The notes under the pieces: model-generated
Database searches by the model: none
The model's input: the letters and a program-made list of their open reading frames with translations, nothing else
Told to the model about the DNA's origin: nothing
Shown: positions 10,149 to 30,618 of the stretch, piece after piece
Layout of the letters: every line of letters starts with the position of its first letter
Position numbering within the stretch: position 1 is the first letter of the stretch
Source: Lineolata rhizophorae
Taxonomy: Eukaryota > Ascomycota > Dothideomycetes > Lineolatales > Lineolataceae
DNA length: 64,000 nucleotides
Direction: 5' to 3'
Assembly: GCA_010093515.1 (NCBI GenBank)
Contig: MU001681.1
Span: 951,831-1,015,830, forward strand
Made by a program: the position numbers and the translations under genes

Positions 10149-11468
10149 ATGCCACCAACCCGCCGAAATAATAACAAGGCCAAATACACCAGGCCTAGCA
10201 ATCCGGAGAAGTTTTACTACGCCTCCACCGAACACTGGGACCAGTTGTCGCTATCCCAACGGCGCCGCTACAACTACGCTTCCGTGATCGAGGAGAATGG
10301 CCACCCGGCGCCGAGTAAGTGCTCGACCTGCAAGAAAATGGATCGAGACTGTAACATCTATCCGCGGGCATCCCGCTCGCGGAAGTGCTCGCGCTGCTAC
10401 CTTTCAGGCCGTACCTGCAGCCCCGCTCTGACCCACGGACGAAACACAGATGCAGACAAGCACGAAGCCGAGACTGACGATGAAACACGGGTCAAAGATC
10501 AGATCGAGGACAAGAAGCGAGTGGGCCGGCCTAAGAAAGTGGGCCGGCCTAAGAAAGTGGGCCGGCCTAAGCAAGTAGGCCAGCCTGAGGATGTGGGCCA
10601 GCCTAAAGCTGAGATGGAAGATGAGTCTAGCCAAGAAGTACAGATGGAAGATGAGTCTAGCCAAGAAGTACAGATGGAAGATGAGTCTACCCAAGAAGTA
10701 CAGACGGAAGACCAGTCTACCCAAGAAGTACAAGGCGATCGCAGCCCTCTGTTGGACCCCTTCTTTGAGCCGTGGGATATTGACCAAGATTTGGTTCCAT
10801 ACAATCAGTTCTTCGCTCCCTATGGGCCATACGTGTCACCTCAAGATGAGAGCCCAGATCCGCTGCTCGGGGGTCCCCAAGACGGACTACAACACCCGCG
10901 TCGAATCAACCCGCATACAATGCGCCGCTACGAGGTAAACGATCCTCCGGAATCGATGCTGATGAGGGGTATGCGACAACCTATCCAACACAACAGCCCA
11001 GACTACCAGAATAACCAGAACAACCAGAACAATGAGCCCGATGAGCCCGATTGGGACGCACTTCTGAGTCTACCATTGCCCGCACCCGCCAACGACGACC
11101 AAACTCATCTCGGTCCTCCTCAACCGATAGATCAGGCATATTACGACGCGCTGCCGCAATTCCCTGTGGGCGGCATCGACGCATCGAACGAACATATTCG
11201 GGAGAACACCCCGGAGCCCGCCGACGATCTCTGCCAAGGACGGCGCTCGTCGCTGGCGGCAGAGGGCGAGAACGAGGAACTGTTTTCCTCCATTGGTCCC
11301 GATGGCTGCTTGCACGCCTTGCCGTCTCCGGAGGAATCCGCGTTGAATCCGCTACAGGCGGACTATGACGGCCGGGATCCGTGGATTGCATACCTGGAGG
11401 AGGTGAACGAGCGTCGGGAACAGGAACTCCAGGAGGAGTTGTGGGCAGGCTTGGACTGGAAACATTAG
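10149..11468 (+). CDS. Zn2Cys6-like protein with AT-hook-like and acidic repeats
   Basis: A single exon of 439 aa; the start is set by the TATA box at 9993. Residues 21-36 read KFYYASTEHWDQLSLS, followed by C58, C61, C68, C80, C83 and C90, which is exactly C-x2-C-x6-C-x11-C-x2-C-x6-C, the spacing of a fungal Zn(II)2Cys6 cluster. The usual basic stretch between the second and third Cys is weak (KKMDRD). Next come five 6-residue units grading from VGRPKK to VGQPKA, the first three resembling AT-hook cores, and then four copies of an acidic 10-residue unit (MEDESSQEVQ type). The rest is Pro/Asp/Asn-rich and ends near WAGLDWKH. There is no fungal transcription-factor middle domain. The protein may bind zinc and DNA in the nucleus (inference). 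Two shorter relatives lie at 27946-28311 and 30289-30618. Confidence 0.75.
   Translation: MPPTRRNNNKAKYTRPSNPEKFYYASTEHWDQLSLSQRRRYNYASVIEENGHPAPSKCSTCKKMDRDCNIYPRASRSRKCSRCYLSGRTCSPALTHGRNTDADKHEAETDDETRVKDQIEDKKRVGRPKKVGRPKKVGRPKQVGQPEDVGQPKAEMEDESSQEVQMEDESSQEVQMEDESTQEVQTEDQSTQEVQGDRSPLLDPFFEPWDIDQDLVPYNQFFAPYGPYVSPQDESPDPLLGGPQDGLQHPRRINPHTMRRYEVNDPPESMLMRGMRQPIQHNSPDYQNNQNNQNNEPDEPDWDALLSLPLPAPANDDQTHLGPPQPIDQAYYDALPQFPVGGIDASNEHIRENTPEPADDLCQGRRSSLAAEGENEELFSSIGPDGCLHALPSPEESALNPLQADYDGRDPWIAYLEEVNERREQELQEELWAGLDWKH
10521..10610 (+). repeat. 18-bp tandem repeat, five copies
   Basis: Five head-to-tail 18-bp units encode VGRPKK, VGRPKK, VGRPKQ, VGQPED and VGQPKA. The first two are identical and the last two have diverged, losing their basic residues. 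Confidence 0.9.
10614..10733 (+). repeat. 30-bp tandem repeat, four copies
   Basis: Four 30-bp units with only a few substitutions, each encoding an acidic 10-mer of the MEDESSQEVQ type. It directly follows the basic 18-bp repeat block in the same gene. Confidence 0.9.
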
Positions 11469-14400
11469 GGCCCGGGCTGGGAAACATGTATCTTGGGAAG
11501 ACCCCGATACCTTCACACGGGCGATGGAATCACAGTTTTCCTTTGTAGATTGAACAACTGTAGATATTAGAGGCCAATATACTAGCGATACAATCCACAT
11601 TTTTAGAAGAAAGCAAATTAAGAGAGTGGTAACAGACGATGTGCTAGGGTCTTGACTATATGACAGACGTAAAGTTATTTCACATATCCGCATTTCGGAA
11701 TAGGCTGTAACAAAGAACATGCAAACTTGCACGCCTAAAATATGGGGTTGCTCCTGCTAGCCCAATCTATAATTTCAATGCCATAGATTTATAGTAATGA
11801 GACGAAAGTTGGAGAGCCTCCAGCAGCATCAGCACGTGACTGGTATAGTTTATACGCAGGCGACGAGCAGCCAATTTGCCGCGTGCCCGCTCCAAGTTTC
11901 TACGGCATTCTCTTGCCGGCCTTCTGCCTCCCGTACTCTTCCACCTGCACACACTTCTGGTCTCTAAGGCATCGCTTGTCTTGTAACACAACACTTGCAG
12001 CAAGCTTCGTCCTTTCCAGTTGAATACTTGTATCATCCCTCCTAGCATTTCTACCTCATTGCCTCCGAACAACATCCCGTTGCTCTTTCTTTCGGAGCAA
12101 AGCCTTTGCAGTCTCTTCGCACTTTTTCCGCATGCAGCCGCTATTGTGCTTGCTGGAAGAGTTTCCCCAGTAAACCGTCCGTAATACTTCGCCACACTTA
12201 CGCACCAACACCACAACCGAGTACATCTCTTGGGATGAGTATAGTCGCTAGATGCGTAACGGCGGCCTTATACTGACAAAACGGCCTCTCTCATTATAGT
12301 GTGTCTGCAAACCTCGTTGTAGCCTCATCGTACACAACACAAGGCCGAGCTAGAAGCGCTCGGTGGCAGAACCTATACACACAACACGGTCAAGACGGCA
12401 GCTGGGGCTAGCCTAAATATCTACTGCAAAAAGCTAGGTAAGTGCATCACGGCCGTCCTCGAACAAGTTTTGCCGCGCTCAATGATTGGAACTGTCCCGG
12501 ACTCGCTGTGACGGCGGTGCATTTCATTGCCGCATGATCACGTGTATAAGTGTCTTTAGTCTGAAGCGCCTCTACACAACTCTACCCTCACCGCGTGCAA
12601 TTACATGCCAGTTAACCTTATTAGCGTATAGAAGGTCGGTGTCTGCGGTCGTAGCGATCAAAGTGTTTCTCGAGCGAACCGTCGGCCGCTGCCAGTGCGA
12701 ACCATCTTCATAGGTATCTCGATACTGCGAATAGGTTTTCCACCATTGTTGTCGCCGTTTCGCTCGCCTGAGGAAAAGGCTTCGGTATAATAGTTCCCTA
12801 GATACCGTTTCCATCCAGGGTGAGTATCAAGGCAATGTCCAGATCGCCCCAGCCTAGAGGCTGGCACTGCGACCCTGTCCCACGTCTAAGCACAATAATG
12901 AAATTTCCGTTTGCTAACTAGTATTTACAGACACGAGCGTCAAAAATGCAACGCACGCCCACTGCTTAGTAAGCACCCTTTTCGCTATTTAACCCATGCG
13001 TATCTATTACCTTTCCCTCTCGATGATGACAAACAAATATTCGACGTCAGGAGTGTTAAGCTTCCGTTTGTGGGGCAAATGTCATATAACCATTGTATTT
13101 GAGCTTCGAGGGATCTCTTCTCTTGTTTCTAGAGCAAGTACTATTAAGGATCTTGGCTAACAAGAGATGATTATAATAGAAGGGTAACATAGACCAGCCT
13201 CACGATCGCACTTTTTGCCATCTTAAGTAAGTAATTCATTCATTGGCCGTACTACACATGTTCCTACCACCATGGTCACCGATCGCGTTTCCGCTACTAG
13301 GAGAGGCTATATCTGAAGAACTACACCTACATATGACTCTCAAGCCGATGTAAGCAAACATACGCTAACAGAGTTAAATAATACACAGAGTTTCAAATCG
13401 ATAGTAATTCCTATGGTTGTAAGGCCAAAACAAAATACCGCAGCTATGAAAGATTGAGAAGTCGTTCCGGTCAGTGCTTTAATATATGCTACCCTCCGAC
13501 GGTCTGGGACGATAAGCATTCTAAAGAATCGGATACCTCGACAGAGGTAAATGAAAACGATTCGTGCTTCGCTCTGAGAAATTCCTCTAAGCTAAAAATC
13601 CCCTCTTTCACTAACTTCCTTGAACTTGTCTGCTAACGAGTAGTATATTAAAGTATAGGGAACCACTTTTACCGTCGTTCAACGCGTACATCGAATCAAG
13701 TACTAGATCAATCTAACTCTAGCGCGCCCACCGATATTCTAAACCCCTGTAAACTACTACGTTGTAGCCATCCAACATCCATTCTCGAGCGCTGGGAATT
13801 CGGGAAAGCGGACCACAGCCGTTGGTTTTAATGTTACCTTAATATGCGATCGGCTTCAAATACCAGGATCACTTGAACGATTGATTTGATCCCTGGAACT
13901 TGGTCTTTCTTCCATGCATAGAACTTGTGCAATACTTTGCAGCGTAAGTAGCCCCAGCAGCGCTCCGACACAAAGTTATCTTCGTTGTTTGACCAAAAGC
14001 GAGTAGATTAACTTGAAAGTTCCTTTTTATAGCCTGCCGCAAACCTCAGCAGCCAATCGCATAGCTCGTCTCGCGAACCACTGGCACCCCTGGCATCTGT
14101 GGCGCAGCGCCCTCGCACGACGGCCGTGGCGGTGCACTCACCAATCGCCAGCCACCCTCCCACTCCCAGCCACGCGACTTGCCAGCCAGCGCCTGCGCGC
14201 TGCGGCAGCGAAACCCGCCCAGCCCAGCCACGGCCAAGACAGGGCTGCCAGCCAGCAGGTGGCTTCCATCAACGCGAAGCTTGCTTCGCCCTGTCCGCCT
14301 GGGCTGGCTTGGGGCTGGCTGGCTGGGGCTGGCTGGGTCGGCCGCGCGATTTGCCTCCGCTTGACGGGGTAAAGGAACAATACGGAAAGAGCGCGACCTG

Positions 14401-14707
14401 TTCACCACCGAGCTTCGAAGGTGAAAGACCCCCGCGAGATCGAGATTGAGACCGCAAAGATGGGATTCGGCGGGGGACCTGCCTAGGTGATTGATCCCAG
14501 TACAAAGGTGACTCGGGCGCAGTCCCCGACCTAGCAAAGGTTGCCTTCACGTCTCCTGCTTGCCTCAGCGGTGCTATCCTTGTTACCTGCCCGCCTCTAT
14601 TTCTTCTTCCTCGACTCCTCTTATTTCAGACTTACCATCTACTTTCCGGTCCATCTCTGTACCTATTCATCTGTCCATCCCCCATTCCTTCGTTGGCCGC
14701 AGGAGCC
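11469..14707. other. 3.2 kb spacer; GCCAGC-rich block and CT-rich leader
   Basis: About 11.5-14.0 kb is AT-richer, with no frame worth calling. About 14110-14345 is GC-rich and dense in GCCAGC/GGCTGG words. About 14540-14700 is pyrimidine-rich and probably promoter and 5' leader of the T5orf172 gene. No RNA gene was seen. Confidence 0.5.
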
Positions 14708-16579
14708 ATGCCGCTCTTCTCCGGCAAAACTCCCGAATCCCTCCTCCCCCGCTCCGACTCCAAGAACCCCGCCACCACCTGCAAAGGCCTCACTTCCAGC
14801 GGGCGCCCCTGCCGGCGTGCCCTCGCCGTGAAGCCCTCCCGGCGGCGCGGCTCCGACAGCGGCGTGCTCGCCTTCGCAGACGGCGGCGCCGATGGCGAAG
14901 GCGCCGCAGCTTTCTTCTGCTGGCAGCACAAGGACCAGGCGGAGCGGCTTGTTGGCAGCGATGCCGATAGTTTCGCAGGCAGAGGAGGAGGAGGCGGTGG
15001 TAGTGGAGTAAGGGCGGGGAGCAGAGTGGGAGGAAGAACTACGCTGGTCCCGCTGAAAGAGCGAAGTAGCCTCGATTCTCTGATCCAGCGCATGGGCGTT
15101 CTAGACGTCGCCGAGGAAACGCCCGAAGACGAATCTGCACCCCCGACACCGACACTGGCGGGCCGACCCTCGAATAGAGACACGCCGAGGCGGAAGCCGG
15201 TGAGGCGTGCCGATGGGCCCGTATCCAACGGTCGTAGTGGCGGATCCAGGATCCAGCGGCCGCCTACGTGGGAATCTGTTCCTGGCCCGCTGTTGTCCGT
15301 CCCGAGCGACGCGATGGGCAGCGTGAATGGCCAACGGCCGGCGGGCGGTACCCGACCTTCTGCGGCCAGACCGGCGGCCCGGCCGTATACTACGCCAGCT
15401 GCCAAGACGAAACAGAAAACGAAGAAAAAGTCGCCTGGTCTGTGGGATTTGTGCTGCGGCGGCACTCTTGACGACGAGGACGACTACGTCGAGATTGTGC
15501 GGCATAGGCGGCGCGTTGAGCAAGAGCAGCAGCAGCGGCAAGGGCAGGAGAGGCCAGAAATGGCGTCCCTGTCGCGGCCGCCACCAGTGGCAGCGCAGCC
15601 TGAACGACATGGGCAAGGAATGACATACGGCTCCTCGCCGCCAACGAGCAGACCAGCGAGGCCCGGACCCCAACCGCACGCCCACCCACCGCCACAGCAA
15701 CAGCAAAGTCGACAAAGAAGACCCAACAGCATCGCACCATCCACGCCATCTCCCTCGCACCTGCACCCGCACCACCCCCCCGGACCCCCGCACGCGCACT
15801 CCACACCCTCTCTCCCCCGCCGCCCTCCACTGCCCCACGCCTCGCACTCCGCCCCGCCATGCCCACAGCAACCCACCAACACACCGGCCCTCATGTCCCT
15901 CATCCCGCCCCACCTGCCCCCCCAAACCGCCTCCCGCCTCCTCGCCGAGCTCGCCCAGCCCGCCTCCCCGCACGACAAGCCCGGCTTCATATACGTCTTT
16001 TGGCTGAGCCCCGGGGCCTCGGCCGGCGCGCCGCGCGAGCGCGCCCGCGTCCGGCGCGCGCGCGAGCTGTTCCTGCGCCCCGGCAGCGGCGGCGCGGCGC
16101 CCGACGCGCTGCCAGATCCGGCCGCCGCCGCCGCCGCTGCCGACGCCGATGCGGGCGCGCCCCGCACTGTCCTGCTCAAGATCGGCCGCGCGGCTAATGT
16201 GCATAGGCGCTTGGGCGAGTGGTCGCGCCAGTGCGGCTACGCGGCGGCGCTGCTGCGGTTCTATCCGCAGGTGCTCGCGGCGGGGGACTATGTTGCGGCG
16301 GGGCCGGGCGGCGGGGGGGAAGGGAGATGGGGAGGGAGCGCGGCGGGGAGTCCGGCGGAAGCTCCTGGTGGGGCGGTGCGGAGGGTGCCGCATGCGCACA
16401 AGGTCGAACGGCTGATTCATATTGAGTTGGGGGAGAGGCAGGTGAGGAGGAAGTGTGCGGTGTGTGGGAGCGTGCACAGGGAGTGGTTTGAGGTGGAGGC
16501 GAGTAGGGAGGGGGTGAGGGGCGTGGATGAGGTGGTGAGGAGGTGGGTTGGCTGGGGGGAGAGGGAGGGGGAGAGGTAG
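14708..16579 (+). CDS. T5orf172 (DUF1766, GIY-YIG superfamily) domain protein
   Basis: A single exon of 623 aa; the ATG at 14708 follows a CT-rich leader and gives MPLFSGKTPESLL. The N-terminus has a cysteine motif (TCKGLTSSGRPC, then FCWQHK) that often precedes this domain in fungal homologues and may bind metal. Residues ~70-420 are Pro/Ser/Gln-rich and probably disordered. The T5orf172 domain runs from about residue 424 (KPGFIYVFWL) through LLKIGRAANVHRRLGEWS (~487) to the end, with HAHKVERLIHIEL, a CAVCGSVHREWFEV segment and a Trp-containing helix. A run of Ala/Asp between the first two blocks is an insertion. Fungal members are uncharacterised; one fission-yeast relative is a meiotically induced gene (mug113). 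Nuclease activity is possible from the superfamily but not shown. Confidence 0.85.
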   Translation: MPLFSGKTPESLLPRSDSKNPATTCKGLTSSGRPCRRALAVKPSRRRGSDSGVLAFADGGADGEGAAAFFCWQHKDQAERLVGSDADSFAGRGGGGGGSGVRAGSRVGGRTTLVPLKERSSLDSLIQRMGVLDVAEETPEDESAPPTPTLAGRPSNRDTPRRKPVRRADGPVSNGRSGGSRIQRPPTWESVPGPLLSVPSDAMGSVNGQRPAGGTRPSAARPAARPYTTPAAKTKQKTKKKSPGLWDLCCGGTLDDEDDYVEIVRHRRRVEQEQQQRQGQERPEMASLSRPPPVAAQPERHGQGMTYGSSPPTSRPARPGPQPHAHPPPQQQQSRQRRPNSIAPSTPSPSHLHPHHPPGPPHAHSTPSLPRRPPLPHASHSAPPCPQQPTNTPALMSLIPPHLPPQTASRLLAELAQPASPHDKPGFIYVFWLSPGASAGAPRERARVRRARELFLRPGSGGAAPDALPDPAAAAAAADADAGAPRTVLLKIGRAANVHRRLGEWSRQCGYAAALLRFYPQVLAAGDYVAAGPGGGGEGRWGGSAAGSPAEAPGGAVRRVPHAHKVERLIHIELGERQVRRKCAVCGSVHREWFEVEASREGVRGVDEVVRRWVGWGEREGER

Positions 16580-18724
16580 GCGGAGGAGGTTGTGGGTGAG
16601 AGAGAGAAGGAAGAAGGGGATGTCGTGGGGTGGGAAAAGCGCGGAGGAGGCGCAGGAGCGTGTGGTGGGGATTTTGGAGTGAGCAGGGCGTTGGTCGAGC
16701 GATTTGGACGCGGTTTGGCCAAAAGCTTGTTGATTCGCGCAACGGGGAGAGACGGAAGAGAGATGTTCATCATCTAGCTTGAATGCTGAAGGGACGAAGG
16801 TTGGGCAGCGGTTCGGCTGGATTGTCCCCACGTGACATTTGGAGAGTGCTTTTTTATGCATTTTCAACCATGGCAGACGCCTAAACAAGGGAAAGAAGAG
16901 CGGAAGGCGATAGTGAGGACCGAGGAGTGCCAGGAAGATCTCACCCGATGCAAAAGTGGATGGATGAGCGATGAGTGACCTGCTGTGAGGTGCAGGTGAT
17001 AGTCGGCAGCCAAGTCAAGAATCCCATCCGAGAACGGGAAGTCTGTCTAGTCTAGTAGCGTGGTAGACGACTATCGCAGACTCGTGGACGAAGTCTCGAC
17101 CCTGACGAGATGGGTAACAAAGACAGGAGTACTGGCGACCTAAGATCAAAGGCCTAGACTCCACGAGACTGAGGTTACGAGGCGACGGAGAAACTCATCG
17201 CAGTACTCCCCTCGTTTCTGCGGTTTTGAATCAAACCTAGCTCGGCCGTGTTTTAATTATACACTCCAGGGGAGTCCATTTTCCGCTTCTGGCTTCACGT
17301 CCGTTGGCGTCGTCGAATGACGAGTGGCTGCGAGAGACGCTGGCTAGCCCGCGTGTCTTTTTGGTTTTACGTAGACGCACTGGTTTGTTACTAAATATAC
17401 CCAATATACATGGGAGTTTTTGGAATTCTCGATGTGCGTTTTGGATACTGGTTCCCCTCCCCCCACCCTGGGGCAGGGTCGAACGTGCACAAGGACGGAG
17501 CGCCGTCGGGCGTTGTTTAGGGCTGAGCGGACTGGGTGACTACCGGATTCAGGCAGGCAAGTGCATGCATGGACGGGGAGTGAAATTCAAATAACGACGG
17601 TCCGGCGGCTTGAGATGGTCGGTCTGTGCCTGGCCCGAGCCAGCGAGCGCTCAGCGGCTGGCGGTTAGATGGTAAGTCAGTGCGGGCCAGTCAGCCATCG
17701 ACAATGGCTCGCGGCCACAACGCAAGCCACGTCGTCAAGGGATCATATTTCCCCTTTCAGACGCCAGGCCTGAACTCGACCGAATTTCAATGCCATGGAA
17801 ATGTTCCCTTGATGATGTCGTCGAGGCAGTGCGCAGAAGCACTCCGTTCGCTGGATTGGGTTACTCAGCATTGGAAACATGACCTGGGCTCCCGTTTACC
17901 TTTGCGCCCGACAACTGCACAGCCACCGGCCACAAATCAAAGCGTGTCTTTGGTTAGTAATCACGCCCGGTTGGCCGGGGCCGCACCGCCTCGCGGAGGC
18001 CTTGCCCGCGCTTGCGTCCCCCTCCATACGAGCCCGGCGCCTGGGGAACTACCTAGATTGAGGACACTTGCTAGGCCGGCACGTTCGGCGATTGGCGGGG
18101 CAATTTAGAGAAGGGGTTCGCATTCCGAATCGGTCGTGCGTCCTCACCGCATTGCTGAGGCGGAGACTGGATGCCTGCCAGATGGGCCCGCGATGCGCTC
18201 TTCTCTTGCAGCCCGCGCAGCGAGCGGCCAGGGCGCATTTAGGGCTGCCTGCCTGGGTTTGCGCGATTGGTCGAGGAAAGCGTTACGGCGTGGGCTTGTG
18301 TCATTGCGATAACTAATGGGTGAGCGAGCAGGATGCCATTTGTTGGCGTGGTCGGCGCAGGGTGTAGCGGCACCGCCCTGCATGATGCGGTCATAGGGCA
18401 GGTGTGAACTGATGAATGAAGCCACGAGATGCATGGGGGTTAGTAGGCTAGGCCTGCAGGACGGGAAAGCGTCTATAAAACAAACGGATGGATGCCTGGC
18501 TGCCTGCGCAGAGGCGTCCGTTGTACACGTACCTAGATTACTGTGGCTTCGCAGCTGGTGCAAGGACGGGACGGGAACGCAGCCCCGAGACCGGGGGAGA
18601 GCCGGCCGGACAACACGGGCGGCCGCGCGCTTAGCACGTGGAATTCCTGGAGAAGAAACGCTTACATAGCGCCCGCGGCGGAGGGGGCAGGCGCTGGAGA
18701 AACGGCGCCGGCGCAAAATCTAGG

Positions 18725-18854
18725 CACATACTACGCACATACTACACACATACTACACACATACTACACACATACTACACACATACTACACACATACTAC
18801 ACACATACTACACACATACTACACACGTACTACACACATACTACACACATACTT
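18725..18854 (+). repeat. 11-bp minisatellite, about 12 copies
   Basis: The unit CACATACTACA is repeated head to tail about 11.8 times. The first copy ends in G, one copy has CACG instead of CACA, and the rest are identical. Eleven is not a multiple of three, so the array is unlikely to be selected as coding, although all three plus frames stay open. There are no spacers, so it is not a CRISPR. Confidence 0.95.
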
Positions 18855-20329
18855 CCCCAATCTTCCGTCCCGTGCGTGCAGGGTGCTGGTTCGCGGGCGC
18901 CGGAAGAATCGGCCAACACCACCAACCAGAGCGCTGGAGCCGCCGGACGACGTGGCTTGGAGGCTCCGAAGTTGGGCCGGCGCGCCGGGCTCTGGAGCGG
19001 CCTCGCACGCACACGAGGAGCCTTATCGACGGCGCGACATGCGCGTGCCCGCGCCGCCAAAGAACGGCGCGTCGGCGCGGCGACGCAGGCCCGAACTCGC
19101 GCGTCGGCACAAGCAAAAGCCAAGCCGTGCCAAGCTCCGGGGCCCGGGTCTCGCCTGCCCGCCTAACCTTCCCGCGTCTCTCGTCCCGGACCCCGGAAAT
19201 AAGCGCCGCCCGTCCACATGTACGTGCTGCTGTGCGTACATACCGGCCGCACGAACGCCCTCTCCCAGCCCGGTGTGCCGGCCGACCGACCGCCCGGCCA
19301 ATAAGGCTGATGAGACGATCGTCCTCCCCCTCCTCTCTCGACGCCGCCGCTGTGACCGCGTCGCCATCGTCCCAACGGCGAGCGGCGCGCGGCGCCAGGG
19401 AGCCCGCCTACAGACGGAGAGCGGCTGACGGCGCATGAGTCATGACGGAGGACGTCCGTTTGGGTTGCGGGGAATGCGTGCTGTTGTCTGTTGTTCCCGG
19501 ATATCCGGGGAAGGGGCCGCCTGGCTTAGGTCAGGCGGTTGGGGAAGCCCGAGGACGAGATTCGGGCTGCATGGGTGCGTCCTGCTGCGCTTGCTGCCCG
19601 TCGCGCCGCCCGGCTTCTTGCGCCGCGATTTGTCCGGCACACGAGCCGTGTATCTACGACCTTCGGGTAGGCGGTGGTGAAAAAAAAAGGTTGACTAACC
19701 TGCTTTTGCTCCTAGCCGGATTATGTATACCGCAGGCGGGGCCGCGCCGTTGACCTACCCAGCTGTTAGAAACTTACTTGCCCCGAGCTCCCACTTCGAG
19801 GCTCGATTCCCCATCATCACATCCGAGCCGGGTTAGAATAACGAACCGGGCTGTGTGCAGCTGTTGGCCAACGCCCGGATCGGAAAAATTCCACTCTACT
19901 GCTAACTGCGCTTTAGTACGCGTCTCCCGTGTCTGTCTGTCCCTTGTCCGCACGTAGGGCTGGCCACCTTAAAAGCTTAGGCTCGAAGCTGCGGCTCGTG
20001 TGTTCTGGCCTGCATGGTGAGAGAGAGAGAAAAACAGAGCACCAGGCACCCGAGCAGGGCTCCGGGACGACTAGGGACGGTAAGGCCACACGCCTCGGTC
20101 CCTGCGCACAGCTTATTTTTGGAGATTGGTGGGCAGCTTGAGGAAAGCTTGCTTCTTGTTTTAAGGCGGCAGCACCTTTGGAATTGGGAACTACTTCTTT
20201 TGTGTTGGCCATTTCTTGGTCATTTCGTTTTCCGCTTTTCATTGTTGCTGCTCGACCCAAAGAGACGGGAGCGTACGCTCTTCTTACCGGTGTGGTAAGA
20301 AAAGAGTGCGAGAGAAGAGAGAGGAAAGG

Positions 20330-20362
20330 TAAAAAAGAAAAAAAAAAAAGAAAAAAAAAAAG
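20330..20362 (+). repeat. A-rich tract
   Basis: About 30 bases of nearly pure A broken by G, preceded by GA-rich sequence, 60-90 bp upstream of the start codon of the Zn2Cys6 regulator. Such dA tracts often exclude nucleosomes in fungal promoters; that role is inferred. Confidence 0.6.
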
Positions 20363-20423
20363 CAATTGAGATACTCTATCATCGATCCCTGGACGCCCAT
20401 AGTCCTTAGCCTATACCGGCGCT

Positions 20424-23400
20424 ATGGCAAAGCGGTCGTGGTCCTTGGCGAATAGCGCGGCGGACGAAACTGATCATGTAAGTTGCACTTGTGGAGCTTG
20501 AAATCTACCCAGTGAGGGGGGGGTTCCTTTTTTTTATCTCGCACTCCCGTAGAGGCGCCACTGGACGGACAACTCAACGATAGAAACTTATTACGCACCT
20601 GTTTAGGCAACGTCGACTCCTCCCAGGTTGTTCAATGGCGGCGGTAGCAACGGAACCAAGCATGGCACCCAACAACCCTACGTCCCGAGAGTATCTAGAA
20701 AGGTCAAGGCTTGTGCCGCGTGCAGGAAACAAAAGGTATTTTGGCCAATTGCTCATTGCTTTTCTGCTGCGAGCTATTGGAAGTCGTCACAATACCCCCT
20801 CCTCCCCCCCCTCCTCGGCGAGTTTGCCGACGATTCTCTAATGCATCTTCCCAGATCAAATGTCTCATGGAAAATGGTCCGCCGTGCCGTCGATGCACAG
20901 AGCGGAACTTATCTTGCGTCCTCAATAAGAGCCTACAAACCTTACTAGACGAACGGTCACAGTACGTTTTTCTAACTCTCAAACATCACTACCACCAAAT
21001 CTGCTAATACAGCTCCCCCTGCCAGATGGAAAGAAACGGTGTCCCATGACCTCGACCACATGCACTCGGCCCTCCAAGGCGTCCTCAAGCATTTCTCCCT
21101 CCCTTTGCTGCCCCCGCTCGAGAGCCATGTCCTGGATTCGGACGATCTCGAGGTCAGCGACGATATCTTCGACCAGCCAGCTGAGCCTCCTCCGACCGCG
21201 CTCCTCCCTTCTTGCGACAGCAGCCCGCGCATCTTGCTCCAGGATGACGCCCTCCCTAACGTCCCAATCGAGTCACTCTATCAGATTACGCGTCCACGCT
21301 CGCTCGGCGGCGAGGTCTCCGACGACGACAAGTACCTGTCGCCTGCATCGGCGAACCGCGACGGCAGTATCAGCGGCGGACCAGGCAGCCAAGGCAGTGA
21401 CCTGGGGCCCATCGGCGGCGTGCCCAGCAACTCGTTCTCAGCTGACCTCGTGAGCAAGAGTCTCCTAAGTTCAGCCGAAGCCTCGCGCCTCGTAGACCTG
21501 TATCTTGGCCGGCTCGACCACTTCATGTATCGCATCGGCGGCGCGGGCCACTCGTCGCTCTCGTCGCTGCGCGGCGGCGGCGGCGGCGGCGGCGGCGGCA
21601 GCGGCGACGCGGGGAGCTCGCCCATCCTAACGGCCGCCATGTGCACCGTCGCGGCGCTGCACGACCCGGCCAGCAACCATCTGTACGAGTCCTGCAGCAG
21701 CGAGTTCCGCCGGCTGCTGACGGCGTCCATGTGGGAGCGCGGCGTCGACAAAGCACACCTGCGCGCCATGTGCATCGGCAGCTACTGGCTGAGCGACATC
21801 TCGTGGACACTATCCGGGGCCGCGATCCGGCGGGCCATGGAGGTCAACCTCAACGCGAACCTGTACCGCCTGGACGGGGTGGACTGTTCCATCGCCGCTG
21901 CCGAGGACGCCGCTGATTGCTTGCGCATATGGTACATCCTGTGGATCTGCGACCAGCATCTCGCGACGCTGTATGGGCGGCCGGCCATCGTGCGCGAGGA
22001 CTATTCCGTCAAGGGGTGGGAACGGTTGCTGCGGAGCCCGGTCGCGACCGAGGACGATCGCCGCATGATTAGCCAGGTGGCGCTGCTGAACATCGTGGCG
22101 AAGGTGCGCGAGACGTTTGGGCCCGACAAGGGCGAAAGAGTGCCGGTCACATACGCCGGGATGATCGCGGATTTCGGACGGCAGTTGGATCGGTGGTTTG
22201 CGGTGTGGCATGCGGATTTGAAAGGCGAGTTTTGGATGCGTTTACTTGTGGAAGTTTACTTGCCTCGTGGTGCGGCGGGAACTGATCGATTTTTGAAATC
22301 GCAGAACATCACGACTACATAGGTCGCTTCCCTCGCCGCGGCGTCCAGCTCCACTACCACTTCGCCAAGCTTCACCTCTACTCGCACGTCTTCCGCGGCC
22401 TGACTTCACCGTCCAGCTACCCTGCTCCTCATTCCACCACCAGTGCCGCTCACCAGACCCCGATACCGACACCCACAACCACCGCCAACTCCAGCACATC
22501 CTCGCGCTCCTCGCTCTCTCCGAACCCCGCCGCAGCAGCAGCGACAACCTCGCCCTCATCCTCGCCGCGGCCCCGGACCCTCCCTCCAGCCTTCCACCCC
22601 TTCGCCTCCGCCGCCGTCTCCTCCGCCACTGCCATCCTCAACCTCCTCCTCACCGACGCCGACGCCGGCGCCAGCCTCGCCGGCGTCCCGCACTACCTGC
22701 ACACCATGTCGGCCTTCGCGTGCGTCTTCCTCGTCAAGCTAGCGGCCAAGTTCCCGCCGGCGAGCACGGCGACTTCGTCGTCGTCGTCGTCGTCGTCTTC
22801 AGGGGCGGGGGCAGGGGCGCGGCGAGACGCCGCCGCCGCCGCCACCGCCACCGCCGCCGAGACGCCCGGCTGGGCCGGCGGCATTGGCCGCCAGGACGCG
22901 TACGAGCTGAGCATGCGCGTCGTGGGCCTGTTCCGGCAGACGAGAGTAGGCCGCGCGCACCTGGTGCATCTGATGGCCGACGGGCTCGAAAAGCTAGCCG
23001 TGGGGCTGCTGCTCGTCCGGGACGGAAGCGGCGAGGACGCGCCGGGCGCGCCTCTCGGCGGCCCCATGCAGCCGCCGCCCGCGCCGCCCCCGGGCATCGA
23101 CTTGGATCCCCGTCTGAGCGTCGCGCATCCGCACGCACACGCCCACGCCCACGCCCACGGCGTCGGATCGCACCCGCCGCCGCACGCCGATCCGGCGCCC
23201 TTGCTGGATAGCCCGTTCCAGGCCTTCTTCGTGGACAGCTCGGACTTCGGGTTCATCGCGCCGGCGCCAGGGGGGGGCTTGGGCGGCGGCCCTCACGCGT
23301 CGTCGCCGGCTCAGGCCGCGGCGGGCGGGAGCTACGCGGCGCAGGGGGCTGGCCATGGCGCGTGCGATGGCGGGGCCGCGGGGGGGCCGGCGGCGAGCTA

Positions 23401-23437
23401 CTTCGATTTGGGGTTCCCGGCGTTTGGGTTTCTTTGA
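20424..23437 (+). CDS. Zn(II)2Cys6 transcription factor with fungal middle homology region
   Basis: Five exons: 20424-20477, 20607-20735, 20855-20961, 21026-22224 and 22305-23437, total 873 aa in one frame. The first exon begins MAKRSW. The zinc cluster is C54-x2-C57-x6-C64-x7-C72-x2-C75-x6-C82 with RKQK and IK basic contacts, split by intron 2 just before C64. A linker helix follows (SLQTLLDERSQWKETVSHDLDHMHSALQ is interrupted by intron 3 after SQ). The middle homology region (residues about 230-500) contains LRAMCIGSYWLSD, DCLRIWYILWICDQHLATLYGRP and, after the last intron, FPRRGVQLHYHFAKLHLYSH. Poly-Gly and Ser/Pro/Ala runs are inserted. The last intron appears to be GC-AG. The family resembles weak-acid/War1-type regulators in its zinc region, but I cannot assign a target. 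Confidence 0.85.
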
Positions 23438-24038
23438 GTGTTGGGGGGGTGTGGGCCGGTTTGTTTGGGGTGAGGTCATGGTGCTGTGTTTGGTTTTCGC
23501 GTGGTTGGTGGCTTCGATTTAGGTCTTGTTTTAGACTGCTTCGTTTTTGTTTATTCTTGGCCTTTGGGTTAGAATTGCCGGTATGATATGATTTACGTTT
23601 CACATGGTGAAATAGGCGTTTTTTTGGTCGTCAAGCAAAATGGTTGATTGTGCCAACGCCGGTCCGTTCTGGATGCAAATGTTTGAGCTAGGTTTTGACT
23701 CCGATTGGTCGAAACCTTGCGAGTCCATTTGGATTCCGGCCCTGTGCTGTCGCTACTCGTACGGTGACCTCGACGAGAGGGGTACTGGCCCAGATCTGGC
23801 GGGCGGCGCTGTGACCCAGCTACTATGCCTTTCCCTGTCGGTGGCAAATTCACTGCTTTTTAGCTCCCCATGGGTTCCCGATGCACGTCACCTGTAAAGC
23901 TGAAATGTTGAGAAATCTTTCAACATCGGGCTGAATTACAGTGCATTTACCATACAAAAGTAAGCAATGCTGAAATTGTCTCCCCATGTCACTCTGCTGC
24001 CTTTCCGATAACCGGGAGACTTCTACACACTCCTATGA
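23438..24038. other. short spacer
   Basis: The T/G-rich sequence after the stop codon (to about 23590) is probably 3' UTR. No gene is supported before the transposase relic. Confidence 0.5.
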
Positions 24039-24794
24039 ATTTCTACTATCGCATGAGCTTACAGAATCCATACACAGCTCGATCAACGCAGCTCGACACC
24101 TCGCCACGGCTCGAGACCTCAACACAGCTCGACACCTCAACACAGCTCTACACCTCAATACAGCTCGACACCTCGCCACAGCTCGACACCTCAACACAGC
24201 TCTACACCTCAATACAGCTCGACACCTCGCCACAGCTCGACACCTCGCCAGAGCTCGATTATATTATCGCCGATATCCTCAGTTCCTCTCCCACCTACTA
24301 GTACTTCAACCGCTACTTCTCCTAGCAATCCAGCTACAGATGAAGCTGTTGACAGACTAAGGGACCGGATTCCTGCGGAAGAAGTTGGCGATGATTCAGA
24401 CGACGACGACTCAACAGCTAGAGAGCTTACTTCTGAGGAAGTAAGGGCCCTCAACCTCCCTTCTGTTCCAGCGTATCACCCAGAGCTTGGCAACAGACAC
24501 CATCGTCAAACACACCTTCCAGAAGGGGTAATTTCGGGCGACCCTTCTGATATTGCGAGGAGACTCTTCCTTCTTTTCTTCAACTTGGTTCTACTCTATC
24601 GACTTGTATTCTATACAAATGCGTATGCTGCGAGAAACCATGCGAGCGACGGGCCTGGGCGACCATGGAAAGATATAAACCTGGGCGAAATTATGATCTT
24701 CCTGGGTATCATTATCTATATTGGAGTTTTTGTCTTAAGTAGAAATATTAGCTCTGTCGCTATAAGAATAGGAGAGCGAAAGAAGCTGGTTTAG
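24039..24794 (+). pseudogene. piggyBac-type transposase relic, 5' part only
   Basis: One plus-strand frame is open for 252 codons yet contains no ATG, so it is a fragment or lacks its first exon. It starts with a Ser/Thr/Pro/His/Gln region made by the 18-bp minisatellite, then an acidic stretch (DDSDDDD) and SGDPSDIARRLFLLFFN. After that come residues matching the N-terminal part of the DDE_Tnp_1_7 (piggyBac) domain: YTNAYAARNHASDGPGRPWK followed by EIMIFLGIIIYIGVF. The frame then stops, and the expected tryptophan, the catalytic aspartates and the C-terminal cysteine domain are absent downstream. I infer a truncated, inactive copy. The distance from typical piggyBac N-termini and the hexapeptide expansion are unusual. 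Confidence 0.65.
24090..24251 (+). repeat. 18-bp minisatellite, nine copies in 54-bp higher-order repeat
   Basis: Nine 18-bp units of the type AGCTCGACACCTCAACAC. Units alternate in a fixed order of three variants, so 24126-24179 and 24180-24233 are perfect 54-bp copies. In the frame of the transposase relic each unit encodes a hexapeptide such as SSTPQH. Confidence 0.92.
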
Positions 24795-26009
24795 CACCTC
24801 CTAAAATTCATATAACTGTATACGGGTGCACCTTCTGTAGGTTTCTACTTTGCAAAAGTGGCTACTTTTAAGAATTCTATGCTGCATAGAAATTACAGGG
24901 TAATACAGAATTTAATTAGTAGATTAAATTTATAGAGTATACCTGCTTACGAGATAACTGAGCTTTTCCAGATACGCTTTAGGAGTAGGCTGATATTACG
25001 GGCCGTAGATCAGCCTCGGTATCTCGGGGGACGTTAAAACAGTTAAAGGGATGGTACATTTGGAAAAGTGCTTCGACTTTAATAACTTCAAAGCCCTACG
25101 GAACACCCACGTCTTATGCCCCACCCATAGAACGAAAGTCAACAGCTTATCGCTAGACTGGAAGTCTTCGGGGATAATCTCAGTATGAGCTCGAGTTCTG
25201 TGTCTGGAAGCTTTCTTGAACCGCTTCGTCAGGCGTTCATTAAGCTCCAGCTGTTCTCGATCCAGACTCGTAAGTCTAAATTTGCTATGTGGCTTCGACG
25301 ATCCATGTCAATCGCCTCATAGTGATGGCGTTGGGGAAGCAGAAATATACCGCAATTCCGCCTAACCGGAAGAGGGAATCTGAAAGCTTCGCCGGAACAA
25401 CCTTTGTTCACTCGCCGTCTAATAGCTTGTATGTATTTCCTTGCCTGTGATGCGGGCTTCTGGCTTTGGACTCACCCGCTAGCGATGCCGGCCGTAGATA
25501 GGTGTGAATGTGAGGTTGTTGCTGTCTTAGTCGACAGACTGCGCCAGTGAATTATTCATGTTCAAAACTTCCCAAGAAGCTCCAAGGTCACCCACCAGCT
25601 TGTTTGCGGCAGATTCACGCATAATTATGGGCTAGCAGAGCAGGCGCCCCTGATCTTGGAAATCGGGGAGTGACGTCGTAGCAATTTCGCAGTGGTTAAG
25701 TTGGATCAACTGGGCGCCACAGAACGCCGGAAAGTGAAGTTCGAACGTCACTAATAGCAAGGACAGGCCGGTGGGAGGAGCAGGGGTTCCCCTTGGCGCC
25801 AAGAGTTCGCTCTTCAAGGTGGCCTCTTCGCTCTCGCACGTCGACCGTTGTCCGGCCGCAGCACAAAGCCCACAAACCCACGCTCATTGACCCCAACACC
25901 GTCGATTATTTGCTTCTTCTCCTAGACGGTCTATATACAGTCGAGTCCTGTCATTGCGACTACGGTATACGGCGCCGCACATTCGCGTCTCTCACGAACG
26001 ACGGGCAAC
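24795..26009. other. spacer after transposase relic
   Basis: AT-rich to about 25000, then mixed. No frame continues the piggyBac domain in either orientation as far as I can read. The last ~100 bp is the SEC72 promoter. Confidence 0.45.
25932..25937 (+). promoter_or_regulatory. TATA box of SEC72
   Basis: TATATA lies 73 bp upstream of the SEC72 start codon, at a normal distance for a fungal TATA element with a short leader. Confidence 0.5.
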
Positions 26010-26615
26010 ATGGACGCGCTCGCCTTCACGCAACTCCCCCTAGCCTACGACCCGGATACCAAGGCCGTCTCCTCGCCTTCGGCGCCGCCCTCCCTCGCCG
26101 CCGAGCTCGCCGACCTAACCGCGCTCCACAAATCGCTCCTGGCGCTCGACAACCCGTCCAAGGTGCCGCCGCCGCCGGTGCCGGTCAACCCGCGGCGCAG
26201 CGCGCAGATCCAGAAGCTGCGCGAGAGCGGCAACGCCGCGTACCGCAAGGGCCAGCACCACGAGGCGGTCAAGCTGTACGGGCTGGGCATCTCGATGGCG
26301 CTGTCGCGGCCCGACTGGGAGCCGGCCAGCCTGGTGCGCGAGGAGGCGAGCGGCCTGTTCGCCAACAGGGCCCAGGCGCACATGGCGGTGCAGCAGTGGG
26401 CCGAGGGCGGCGGCGACGCAAAGTGCAGCGTCGAGCTGAAGAAGGTCGGCAACGCGAAGGCGTGGTGGAGGAGGGGGAAGTGTCTTTGTGAGATGGGGCG
26501 GTGGGAAGAGGCGCGTGAGTGGGTGAGGGAGGGGCTCGGGATGGAGGGCGGCGAGGCCGATCTGGTCGCTCTGAGCAAGGAGATTGATGCTGCGTTGGAG
26601 AAGCGGAGGAAGTGA
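26010..26615 (+). CDS. SEC72: ER translocation complex subunit Sec72 (TPR protein)
   Basis: A single exon of 201 aa, the usual length for filamentous-fungal Sec72. The sequence follows the family closely: MDALAFTQLPLAYDP at the start, a PPPPVPVNPRRSAQIQKLR linker, then a three-repeat TPR region from about residue 66 to 185, with ESGNAAYRKGQHHEAVKLY, NRAQAHMAVQQWAEG and KAWWRRGKCLCEMGRWEEA. Sec72 sits on the cytosolic face of the ER in the Sec62/63/71/72 complex and docks Hsp70 (Ssa1) tails during post-translational protein import into the ER. The TPR clamp residues are consistent with this but were not checked one by one. The long upstream alternative frame is a shadow; the ATG at 26010 lies 73 bp after a TATA box. 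Confidence 0.93.
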   Translation: MDALAFTQLPLAYDPDTKAVSSPSAPPSLAAELADLTALHKSLLALDNPSKVPPPPVPVNPRRSAQIQKLRESGNAAYRKGQHHEAVKLYGLGISMALSRPDWEPASLVREEASGLFANRAQAHMAVQQWAEGGGDAKCSVELKKVGNAKAWWRRGKCLCEMGRWEEAREWVREGLGMEGGEADLVALSKEIDAALEKRRK

Positions 26616-27945
26616 GGGATAGGCTACGCCTGAAGTGGGACGCACTTGATGTACGGCTACCGGCGTAACGGCGTGGGCTCGAGAAGGATACGTCTAGAAC
26701 CGCATCGCTCGGTGCTTCGGTCGTGGGTGTTGATGCACTTGTGAGCCTCTCCTGCAATTTTCTTCCCCACTTTGCAGAATTACGCCGTCAGATTCTACTT
26801 AAACAACCTCAGGTAACGACTAACCAGAAGCAGAAGCCCAGGAAACTAGGCCTAGTATTCTTGAACTCCTTTAGACTGTGCTTTTTAGGAACCGGCTATC
26901 ATTCTTGAAATAGTTGGGAAGACATTCGCCCGTTACTTTCCCGTGCCTACCAACCTATAAAAGCTCTGCATACGTGTTTTCTGCTCTAGATATATGGCCC
27001 GAGCACCCACATGAGCGCTTTCCACCAGTTTTGATGCCATCTATGCGCTATGACACTGAAAGCGAGCATACCTCTCAACTATGACCTGTTCAATATATCA
27101 TCCCTCAATGGTTTGCAAGGTCGCTCCACCCCGTCTAGTTGAACGAATACTTATGCAAGACTACATGGATGTCCACATCCAATGACGCATTCGCTTCCAG
27201 AGAGATTTGCATACTTAACAAAGTGGGCGAGGGAGAACATCCAAGAATACATGAACGGGAACAGTCGTGGGTTTACCTCTCATAAATGCAGGTTGATTGT
27301 TTCTAATCCCACGTGCAACGTTGCAGGCACATGAACTTTTATCAATACGTGCTCTTCCCATTTCGAGGTTGTCCAGCCGCTCTGGTTCATAAGAATTATA
27401 AGTGGACGTGTGGAACACTTTTCACTCAATGATCCTGCCTTCTCTTTTGGGGACTGACCATTCCGAGACCCAAGGCGAAGAGTCGCCATTCAGATTGAAC
27501 ACAGAAACTTTCCAACGAAAATTTTCACATCGTACCAAGAATGGAAATTTCCAAAAGAAACGTATTAAGAACTACTCTTTCGTAGGCACTTCCACTAGCT
27601 ACGTTAGAAGGCAAGAAGTAGAATGGAAGAAACAGCTCGAGCACCCGCCCCCAAAAAAATTTCTCGCTATAGTGGAGGATGAGCCACCACCGCGATATCA
27701 ACTGACAGAAAGCCAGGGCCCAAGCGTTCACACCGCTCCTGATAAATAGCAGCCTCGGAGCTCGGGACCAAACCTTTCAAACATCAGAGCGAATTGCAAA
27801 TTAGTGATCGAAATAAGTTTCCCTTGATAAAAAGCCCGCTTACTCGGACGCGTATCTACGGAGGATGCATCCACCATGATCTAGCGAAGCTCGTGTTCTA
27901 AGACATCTCTGAACCGAAAGTCGTCCATCTATTGTCATCGCTCCG
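26616..27945. other. spacer, no gene called
   Basis: Frames up to 115 codons (27402-27749, plus) show no domain and no neighbouring exon. I see no repeat or RNA gene. Confidence 0.45.
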
Positions 27946-28311
27946 TCAGCTATGCCTTTCAGCGTAAGACTTAGTTCGGGCCAAAAGCATTAGAGCAGCG
28001 ACGATTGGAGCGCTGGAGAGACGAGATACATGACTGCAGTTTAGATCGTCAAAGACGCAACGGTTGCAAAGACGCATGTCCCCCTTCGCAGCGGTCCGGC
28101 ATTCATATCCCATCTCAGAGCAACGCTTGCATGATGGAGTGGCAAGCAAGTTTGCGGCTTGAGTTGGTTCGGTCAAGTGCTCCGCCAGGAAATAATGGAT
28201 CGTCTCCGGCGCCGACAACTTGAACCATTGGTCTCGAGATACGTTGTAAAACTTGCCGGTAGCCAGCGGCCGTAGAATCATAACTCTGAAATACGGTGGT
28301 GATAACGCCAT
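27946..28311 (-). CDS. small Zn2Cys6-like protein
   Basis: A single minus-strand frame of 121 aa starting MALSPPYFRVMILRP. Residues 20-33 (KFYNVSRDQWFKLS) align with KFYYASTEHWDQLS in the protein at 10149. Then C61, C64, C71, C82, C85 and C92 give C-x2-C-x6-C-x10-C-x2-C-x6-C, followed by Ser. The stretch between the second and third Cys (SEMGYE) has no Lys or Arg, unlike a DNA-binding Zn2Cys6 cluster. The tail of about 29 residues ends soon after the last Cys, so there is no activation or regulatory domain. Zinc binding is likely from spacing; function is unknown. The gene might be longer if an intron were missed. It sits in a gene-sparse stretch. Confidence 0.6.
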   Translation of the reverse strand: MALSPPYFRVMILRPLATGKFYNVSRDQWFKLSAPETIHYFLAEHLTEPTQAANLLATPSCKRCSEMGYECRTAAKGDMRLCNRCVFDDLNCSHVSRLSSAPIVAALMLLARTKSYAERHS

Positions 28312-30288
28312 AACGGAATATGTGGGTTTTACAAATGTGTGTGGAAGAAAATTCTGTAGGCGTTGCTGAAGGTTGTGAAAGGAACAATTTCTACGGTACC
28401 GGCGGATATAGATTGTGTAAGGGCTAGGTGGTGACTTTTTTCCGCATCGATCGCCAAGAAACTAGCGTAAAAAGAAAGTACAAGGTGCAATTCATTTTCT
28501 TCCAACTCTAGTGCGAGAAATCACTAATTCATGGCTAATCCAGGGAATATGGGAACTGGGATGGGACACAAACTGCCACCAATGGATCGGCAAGTTGGAT
28601 GTCAGCCACAAACAAAACTTTACAAATACGTTCTGAGAAAACTGGTAGAAGTTCTCAACTCTTAAGGCAAGACAAAAGTAATATTGCACCTTAGCGTTCT
28701 TCAGCATTCTTCAGCGTAGTTTCAGCAAGGATCAATGAGTTTGAGATGCGGAGGGGCGCTCTACACCAAAGGATAACTAAGGGCCTGGTTAACCTTGATT
28801 ATTAATAGTAGATGCTTTAAATGCTGTAGAATCCAATGAATTAAGTGGATCTTCAATCTGACACAGCTTTTATTCTATGTCGGCGCTCAAAATAAGGTAA
28901 ATGACGCACCTTTTCACAACTTATTTCGCTGCAGTCCCGCTACATCTATACACCATGTAGCTCTAACCATGCAATCTTGCTTTAGGATTTGGTACTTAAA
29001 GCCTATATCATCTAAGTTCGAATATATAGGTGCCATAAGGGTTGCTCGCTAAAAGAGTCAGGCGTTGGTTAGAAATATTGCTTTTGCCATGAGTAAGACT
29101 AGTTTGTCCTTCGTCGCGGGTTTTATGAAAGCGGCCTCTCCTCTTGCCCGAACAGGGTAAGACTTTAAGATATTTAATATAGCGAATAAAAGGCTAGCTT
29201 GACGCACATAAAATCTATATCATTCATATACCTAGCCTAAAACTATAAGAATAAAGGTATTTATAATATATTTACTACTTTGGCCCAGATCATATGTAAG
29301 ACTATCTGGAATGCATTCAGTTCACGGCATGTCGCAAACGATGCCTGTACCCTTAGAATTCTATCTTCATGTAGTAGATATCGTATTTTCATTAGGAACG
29401 TAATTTAGACACTATTGTGGACGGAACGCCATAGAGTCGAAATGCTGCTGTCCTTGGAGTTCTTCAGCAGCAATTCACGGGTTTCCCCAGAGTCATAGCT
29501 GCTAAATACTCGAGTATTGAGCAAGGCATGACTAAACGGAATCAAAAAGCATCTAAGTGTTGCTGGGTCCTTAAACGTTCTTCCTCTATATAATATATGC
29601 AACTTGTTCATCAGCCATTACCAAGAATACGCCCAAACTGAGGATGGTGCGCTGATGAAAAGGCCAAACAACTGCGATTCAATACGGCAGAGCACTTGCC
29701 CCGCATCACTAGATCAAAGAGATCAGTTGGTACTACACGCTGAAAACCTTAGCCGCGTTTACAATGGGAAGTCTAGAAACAATACCATTGGATCAGTCCA
29801 TACGGCGTCTGGCATTAACCCCTTTGTTCAGTTGTTGTTATTTCTCCACGTATATCGAAGTATCATGGATCACTCATAAACAGTGGGTCAGGAGGCTGTG
29901 ATATTCTTCTGTTCACCCTGTGGTGCCTGCATTGCCGCCGTGCCTGCCTTGCCGTCGCGGGACCCATCGTGTCGCCGGACTAAGCCCTGGAGTTCAAGTT
30001 CGACGGGGATGCCTCCCTCGGCGGCGCCGTAAGCCTCCCGACGATCTAATTCAATGGCAATAGTTACTCGAACTCAATCGTCAGATGTGATGCTAGACCC
30101 ATCACACATTTGGCGTCGAAATTCTTCTCCCTAAAGACATAAAAGGGGCCCAAGTTGGCCTTTTCTCTTCCACTGTCCACAACTCTTCCACACTTGCACC
30201 TTGGCTTTTCGTTCCACAACACCTTAAGGCACACAATCACTTAGCCGAAGTATTCCTGAAGAGCGGCTAAAAGAAGCACTCAGAAAAG
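28312..30288. other. AT-rich spacer
   Basis: About 28.7-29.4 kb is notably TA-rich with frequent stops in all frames, consistent with decayed or RIP-mutated DNA, but no transposon protein can be read. A TATA-like CATAAAAGG at about 30138-30146 may serve the next gene. Confidence 0.45.
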
Positions 30289-30618
30289 ATGAGGACTGCG
30301 GCGGCTGGTCCAGCCTCTCAGCCGGTTGACCAAAGGCGTTACAAGAAGCTTGGGAGGAGACAGCAGGAGCGGATAAAAACTGCCCAAGAAATTCAAAACA
30401 CGACCAAAGGCCGCGATGCGGATCAGCGTTGCACATATTGTGCCTTCCATAATTATCGTTGCCGGGTGTTTGTAGAGTGGTGGGAATTGCATCAGCACTG
30501 TGGGCACTGCCATAAGACTGGGAACCCATGTTCCCATCAAGCCATCGTAAGTGACAATCTATCTTCTGAGTTACTTCTCGATCCGGCCAAACACTGGCTT
30601 CTTGACGGCACTGGCTGA
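30289..30618 (+). CDS. small Zn2Cys6-like protein
   Basis: A plus-strand frame of 109 aa beginning MRTAAAGPASQPVDQRRYKK. C48, C51, C58, C71, C74 and C81 give C-x2-C-x6-C-x12-C-x2-C-x6-C, again followed by Ser, as in the proteins at 10149 and 27946. The segment between the second and third Cys (AFHNYR) lacks the usual basic contacts. The N-terminal part is basic and helical (RRQQERIKTAQEIQ). A strong donor (GTAAGT, 30549) lies six codons after the last Cys. If used with an acceptor at about 30676 the protein would end within a few residues, so the cysteine region is the whole folded part either way. Function is unknown. Confidence 0.6.
   Translation: MRTAAAGPASQPVDQRRYKKLGRRQQERIKTAQEIQNTTKGRDADQRCTYCAFHNYRCRVFVEWWELHQHCGHCHKTGNPCSHQAIVSDNLSSELLLDPAKHWLLDGTG

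What the first reader, a model, noticed from the sequence alone, without database searches (positions are those of the whole stretch)
10149..30618. A dispersed family of three short Zn2Cys6-like proteins
The proteins at 10149-11468 (+), 27946-28311 (-) and 30289-30618 (+) share one plan: the first cysteine at residue 48-61, C-x2-C-x6-C-x(10-12)-C-x2-C-x6-C, and Ser right after the last Cys. Two also share KFY-x2-S-x3-W-x2-LS upstream. Zn2Cys6 spacing is kept, but the Lys/Arg contacts between Cys 2 and 3 are reduced or absent, and no regulatory middle domain follows. Three members within 20 kb of gene-sparse DNA suggest a lineage-amplified family, perhaps zinc-binding modulators, decoys for true Zn2Cys6 factors, or domesticated transposon domains. 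This is my best candidate for something undescribed.
Basis: partly seen in the sequence, partly recalled or inferred. Interest (0 to 1): 0.75.

Follow-up and report, generated by a model that had tools for sequence, protein, structure and literature searches.

The report
Local trio of orphan six-cysteine proteins
A mangrove fungus carries, within 20 kb, two clearly related genes and one probable relative whose products keep the cysteine spacing of fungal zinc-cluster regulators but lack their usual DNA-reading half; they look like a small local orphan group, not a large amplified family.

Summary
The three six-cysteine ORFs are real at the stated coordinates. Their spacing, C-x2-C-x6-C-x(10-12)-C-x2-C-x6-C-S, did not arise in 100 random 64-kb sequences, nor in 193.5 kb of flanks apart from a poly-Cys repeat. 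Proteins 1 and 2 are homologous beyond the cysteines (12 of 35 identical, 0 of 5000 shuffles). Protein 3 shares the cysteine plan, but its upstream segment aligns at shuffle level. Coding support is strong for ORF 1, moderate for ORF 2, weak for ORF 3. The genome is very probably Lineolata rhizophorae. Genome-wide protein searches detect no further member (weak hits read), so "lineage-amplified" is not supported. All three stay under the Pfam Zn_clus cut-off, and the recognition half scores at random level. Homolog searches returned nothing, not even an annotated copy. Best reading: a local orphan group of zinc-cluster-like proteins, one long member with AT-hook-like and acidic repeats and two short single-domain ones that may modulate it. 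Zinc binding and function are inferred. Modest interest.

The parts
10149..11468 (+). Long member (P0001, 439 aa): N-terminal KFY..W..LS segment, six-Cys cluster, AT-hook-like repeats, acidic repeats, acidic C-terminal half; single-exon ORF
10191..10295 (+). Pre-cluster segment of P0001 (residues 15-49), homologous to P0002 residues 14-48
   Evidence: 12 of 35 identical, 0 of 5000 shuffles reach the score
10320..10418 (+). Six-Cys cluster of P0001, C-x2-C-x6-C-x11-C-x2-C-x6-C, Ser next
10515..10604 (+). Five 18-bp units; three code VGRPK-type (AT-hook-like) and two VGQP-type units
   Evidence: (D4); the AT-hook resemblance is recalled, no Pfam AT_hook match
10612..10731 (+). Four 30-bp units coding acidic MEDESSQEV-type repeats
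   Evidence: (D3)
9993..10002 (+). TATA-like TATATAAATA, 156 bases before the P0001 ATG
   Evidence: sequence match only
27946..28311 (-). Short member (P0002, 121 aa): pre-cluster segment, cluster and a short tail, pI about 9.0
28168..28272 (-). Pre-cluster segment of P0002 (residues 14-48)
28036..28131 (-). Six-Cys cluster of P0002, loop of 10, Ser next
30289..30618 (+). Short probable member (P0003, 109 aa): six-Cys cluster, pI about 9.0; may be exon 1 of a slightly longer gene
30430..30531 (+). Six-Cys cluster of P0003, loop of 12, Ser next
30547..30629 (+). Possible 83-nt intron (GTAAGT donor, CTRAY branch, AG) just after the P0003 cluster; if used, the protein is 125 aa and ends in a basic RSKA-repeat tail
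   Evidence: no transcript evidence
20712..23437 (+). For contrast, not a member: likely genuine Zn2Cys6-type regulator gene in the same window, cluster split by a likely intron (CAACRKQKV / CLMENGPPCRRCTERNLSC)
   Evidence: ORF 20976-22322 has no Pfam hit, so the label rests on the cluster and on recalled resemblance of the body

Best explanation
A small local group of orphan zinc-cluster-like genes, very probably of Lineolata rhizophorae, that arose by duplication in place followed by fast divergence. Each product probably folds a compact six-cysteine, two-zinc cluster, but the basic half that reads DNA in true Zn2Cys6 factors is missing, so base-specific DNA reading of the Gal4 kind is unlikely. 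The long member carries AT-hook-like basic repeats and acidic segments and would act in the nucleus as a regulator or cofactor. The two short members are little more than the domain itself and would bind the same partners, most likely tuning or competing with the long one. Shown: the ORFs, the motif, homology of members 1 and 2, no further member detected, absence of the recognition half. Inferred: duplication in place, zinc binding, nuclear role, modulation, and membership of the third ORF.
For: Motif far beyond chance. P0001 and P0002 find each other and no other real match in 31 Mb (other weak hits read) and are homologous outside the cysteines. Leave-one-out profiles recover each member (6.7e-6, 1.7e-7, 1.4e-3). 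First halves score -9.8, -10.9 and -14.5 bits against the recognition-half model, against 12.2 to 20.6 for 8 genuine domains left out in turn and -12.3 (sd 4.7) for random. Repeats and charge pattern of P0001. Three flanks single-copy; negative RIP index in the blocks that hold the ORFs.
Against: No expression or zinc data. The protein database, which holds another protein of this contig (P0004), returned no annotated copy of P0001 or from the alignment with P0002 first, so the genes may be silent or modelled otherwise. P0003 has weak coding support and no pre-cluster similarity. For P0002 a zinc-knuckle-type Pfam model (ZCCHC24_C, E 0.0024, 12 residues) scores better than Zn_clus (E 0.021), both under their cut-offs. 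Structure models are poor: mean pLDDT 46 and 65, the second with hairpins and not Gal4-like helices, nothing in PDB better than E 9.9.
Confidence: 0.45

Rival explanations
1. Ordinary decayed Zn2Cys6 regulators: remnants of duplicated true factors that lost the recognition half and middle domain and are drifting to pseudogenes.
For: Weak similarity to Zn_clus in 3 of 3 (E 0.021, 0.11, 0.78) and of their profile to GAL4 chains (best E 0.036); no annotated copy returned; weak coding signal of P0003.
Against: All six cysteines and the Ser are kept in 3 of 3 although identity to P0001 over the domain is only 27% and 18%, which drift would not do; P0001 keeps a 439-codon open frame with coding-like codon use.
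Confidence: 0.2
2. Two real homologs (P0001, P0002) plus an unrelated ORF (P0003) with a coincidentally similar cysteine plan.
For: Pre-cluster segment of P0003 aligns at shuffle level (2419 and 1275 of 5000); coding score ambiguous; own-genome search with P0003 finds neither of the others.
Against: The plan did not arise in 100 random 64-kb sequences; a profile of the other two finds it at E 0.0014; it lies 2 kb from P0002.
Confidence: 0.2
3. A non-Gal4 zinc module (zinc-knuckle or hairpin type, or a cluster built of two second-type halves) used for RNA or protein binding.
For: For P0001 and P0002 Pfam aligns the first half with the second half of Zn_clus; the trio profile does the same against GAL4 chains and in hhalign against 8 genuine domains. 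P0002 also touches zinc-knuckle models (E 0.0024 and 0.027). Hairpins in the low-confidence model.
Against: All these matches are weak and under cut-off; P0003 aligns to Zn_clus in the ordinary register; half-model scores are near random for most halves (P 0.003 to 0.49); any half without basic residues would lean that way.
Confidence: 0.12
4. Transposon-derived domains spread with a mobile element.
For: A piggyBac-like DDE_Tnp_1_7 fragment lies at 24558-24743 between members.
Against: That fragment and three tested flanks match only themselves in the genome; the detected members are confined to 20 kb.
Confidence: 0.03

Closest known systems
Fungal Zn(II)2Cys6 binuclear cluster domain (Pfam PF00172, Gal4 type)
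   Same: Six cysteines with C-x2-C-x6-C twice; weak Pfam similarity in 3 of 3
   Different: Under the Pfam cut-off; no basic recognition half; no Pro within two residues before Cys4; loop of 10-12; no fungal transcription factor domain in Pfam
Truncated peptide with only the Zn2Cys6 domain, made by intron retention in Aspergillus nidulans AN1569 (PMC8396895, passages seen)
   Same: A short product that is little more than the cluster domain
   Different: There a splice form of an ordinary full-length factor; here separate genes with a non-canonical cluster
microProteins (small single-domain relatives of larger regulators; concept recalled, not from a call)
   Same: P0002 matches the N-terminal part of P0001 and lies 16.5 kb away
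   Different: No evidence of dimerisation, dominant-negative action or expression
AT-hook proteins (recalled)
   Same: P0001 has three tandem VGRPK-type units and two VGQP-type ones
   Different: The residue before GRP is Val, where the recalled core has Arg; no Pfam AT_hook match

Membership tests
Zn(II)2Cys6 (PF00172) | Cysteine spacing C-x2-C-x6-C-x(5-14)-C-x2-C-x(6-8)-C | tested here: met
   3 of 3
Zn(II)2Cys6 (PF00172) | Score above the Pfam curated cut-off (21 bits) | tested here: not met
   13.1, 15.4 and 10.3 bits for the trimmed domains; 12.6 bits for full P0002, none listed for the other two
Zn(II)2Cys6 (PF00172) | Basic recognition half between Cys2 and Cys3 | tested here: not met
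   random-level scores in 3 of 3; model from 8 genuine domains of the same genome (8 with loci, of 68 matches)
Zn(II)2Cys6 (PF00172) | Pro within two residues before Cys4 | tested here: not met
   0 of 3; 8 of 8 genuine domains
Zn(II)2Cys6 (PF00172) | Two zinc ions bound in the Gal4 fold | tested here: inconclusive
   models too poor; zinc itself not testable
Full-length fungal regulator | Fungal transcription factor middle domain downstream | tested here: not met
   0 of 3 ORFs as given; unknown further exons are not excluded
Lineage-amplified gene family | Many copies across the genome | tested here: not met
   only trio members; members as distant as P0003 could be missed
Domesticated transposon domain | Repeat copies or element ends around the gene | tested here: inconclusive
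   three flanks match only themselves; element ends were not sought
microProtein | Short protein homologous to one domain of a larger protein | tested here: met
   for P0002 against P0001
microProtein | Binds and modulates the larger protein | not testable with these tools
   needs a binding or reporter assay

The most novel reading that the evidence does not exclude
A fungal microProtein system born in place: a long orphan regulator (P0001) built on a zinc cluster without the DNA-reading half, and one or two short neighbours that are stand-alone copies of its domain and act on it in trans.
Probability: 0.12. Interest if true: 0.55.

Novelty: new variant of a known kind. Interest (0 to 1): 0.3.

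Why it matters
If the genes are expressed, they would show a zinc-cluster scaffold kept while its DNA-reading half is lost, beside stand-alone copies of the same domain: a route by which orphan regulators and their modulators could arise in one place. They also seem to be missing from public annotation, and they stay under the Zn_clus cut-off, so counts of fungal zinc-cluster proteins based on that model would not see such genes.

Tried and rejected
Amplified family: not supported by own-genome searches. The four other weak hits, L011, L012 (E 0.92, 1.14), L038 and L039 (E 0.31, 0.37), hold no six-Cys motif when read; L039 is the reverse strand of a gene with CCHC-type repeats (type recalled). 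Intron-split extra copies within 257 kb: sought by profile and by paired half-motifs 15-200 bases apart (halves with more than four Cys dropped), none beyond the trio. Repeat-induced mutation: the composite index is above zero in 3 of 32 blocks of 2 kb (12-14, 18-20 and 24-26 kb; 0.12, 0.02, 0.05), none holding the three ORFs. Structure: two AlphaFold jobs, low confidence, no useful match. NCBIfam: no match at E <= 10. PDB by sequence: nothing meaningful for P0001 or P0002 alone. Literature: searches, judged from listings and abstract starts, showed no description of such a family; PMC8396895 and PMC5415576 were seen as passages only.
Full report
Source. The window is G000:C12:951831-1015830 of a 31.0-Mb, 48-contig genome. 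The amino acid permease exon at 58.8-59.9 kb matches a Lineolata rhizophorae protein held in ncbi, uniref and nr at 98% over 91% of the query, on a contig of 1,099,354 bases, the exact length of C12. NCBI places Lineolata in Lineolataceae, Lineolatales, Dothideomycetes.

Observation. The three ORFs and their motif are as reported. A motif scan of the window and of 193.5 kb of flanking contig found the three and otherwise only a poly-cysteine repeat in L035. First-order random sequence made from the window gave 0 hits in 40 (loose motif) and 0 in 100 windows (tighter motif).

Relatedness. BLASTP P0001-P0002 gives E 8e-8 for the single comparison, P0001-P0003 0.007, P0002-P0003 nothing. The pre-cluster segment, which has no cysteine, aligns without gaps between P0001 and P0002 (12 of 35 identical, 0 of 5000 shuffles), but P0003 is at shuffle level (2419 and 1275 of 5000). 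At non-cysteine positions in the cluster alignment, 95, 16 and 68 of 5000 shuffles reach the observed scores; this is biased in favour of relatedness, because the register was chosen by the aligner and the Ser column is included. Leave-one-out profiles recover P0001 at 6.7e-6, P0002 at 1.7e-7 and P0003 at 1.4e-3 among 5940 ORFs. I take P0001 and P0002 as homologs and P0003 as a probable one.

Genes or not. By codon score P0001 is coding-like (frame +1 best, GC3 0.63; no ATG ORF of that length in 200 local shuffles). P0002 has frame +1 clearly best. P0003 is ambiguous: -0.167 against -0.192 in a reverse frame, and when cut at the possible donor two reverse frames beat it (-0.153 and -0.161 against -0.181); chance gives an ORF of its length 0.7 times per region. 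TATA-like strings lie at -156, -99 and -150. P0003 has a GTAAGT donor right after the cluster with a fitting branch point and acceptor; if used, the tail becomes basic RSKA repeats. P0001 has a GTAAGT at 10315 that could start a 135-nt intron removing the cluster in frame. Both are unproven.

Copy number and setting. Searches of the whole genome with each protein and with trimmed domains return the trio: P0001 and P0002 find each other, P0003 only itself. Four other weak hits hold no motif. These searches could miss members as distant as P0003. Flanks at 8.0-10.1, 11.5-13.9 and 28.5-30.3 kb match only themselves, with the tool's caveat that very common words are skipped.

Relation to Zn2Cys6. 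Pfam Zn_clus has 68 matches at E <= 1e-3 in the genome, none of them in the window. The trio stays under the cut-off, at 13.1, 15.4 and 10.3 bits against 21. Against half-models from 8 genuine domains (those with loci, of 68), the trio's first halves score at random level for the recognition half. For P0001 and P0002 Pfam pairs the first half with the second half of Zn_clus, while P0003 aligns in the ordinary register. The trio profile shows the shifted pairing against GAL4 chains (best E 0.036) and in hhalign (E 5.6e-4 and 0.0014, probabilities 30% and 17%). This may mean a cluster of two second-type halves, or merely a lack of basic residues; the half scores are too weak to decide. For P0002 a zinc-knuckle-type model scores slightly better than Zn_clus (E 0.0024 against 0.021). 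A likely genuine Zn2Cys6 regulator with a split cluster lies at 20.7-23.4 kb and shows what is missing.

Database. A control from the same window returned 409 proteins at E <= 1e-5, of which 120 are listed, and the organisms named among them are fungi. The method needs shared exact words, so distant relatives can be missed, but an identical annotated protein of fitting length should not be. The trio thus appears unannotated there; which length range applied to the alignment query is my assumption, and one control protein does not prove that the proteome is complete in the database.

Verdict. A real local orphan group, two members sure and one probable; no further member detected; not members of PF00172 by test, though they may work on a similar zinc scaffold. 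The mechanism, a long nuclear regulator with short single-domain modulators, is inference.

Noticed in passing
window 24558-24743: Fragment of a piggyBac-type DDE_Tnp_1_7 transposase (E 1.1e-4, 22.0 bits against a cut-off of 22.4; piggyBac label recalled); a query from 24402-24785 matches only itself in the genome. An 18-bp tandem repeat array lies just upstream at 24.05-24.28 kb.
   Followed up: partly
window 14495-16579: ORF with a T5orf172/MUG113 domain.
   Followed up: no
window 20712-23437: Likely Zn2Cys6-type regulator whose cluster is split by a likely intron; it is not among the Zn_clus matches of the six-frame search, and its ORF 20976-22322 has no Pfam hit.
   Followed up: partly
window 10315-10449: Possible frame-preserving 135-nt intron in P0001 that would remove the six-cysteine cluster; perhaps chance.
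   Followed up: partly
window 18720-18862: Long 11-bp tandem array (CTACACACATA).
   Followed up: no
window 1794-2351 (-): ORF with a PigL_N domain match.
   Followed up: no
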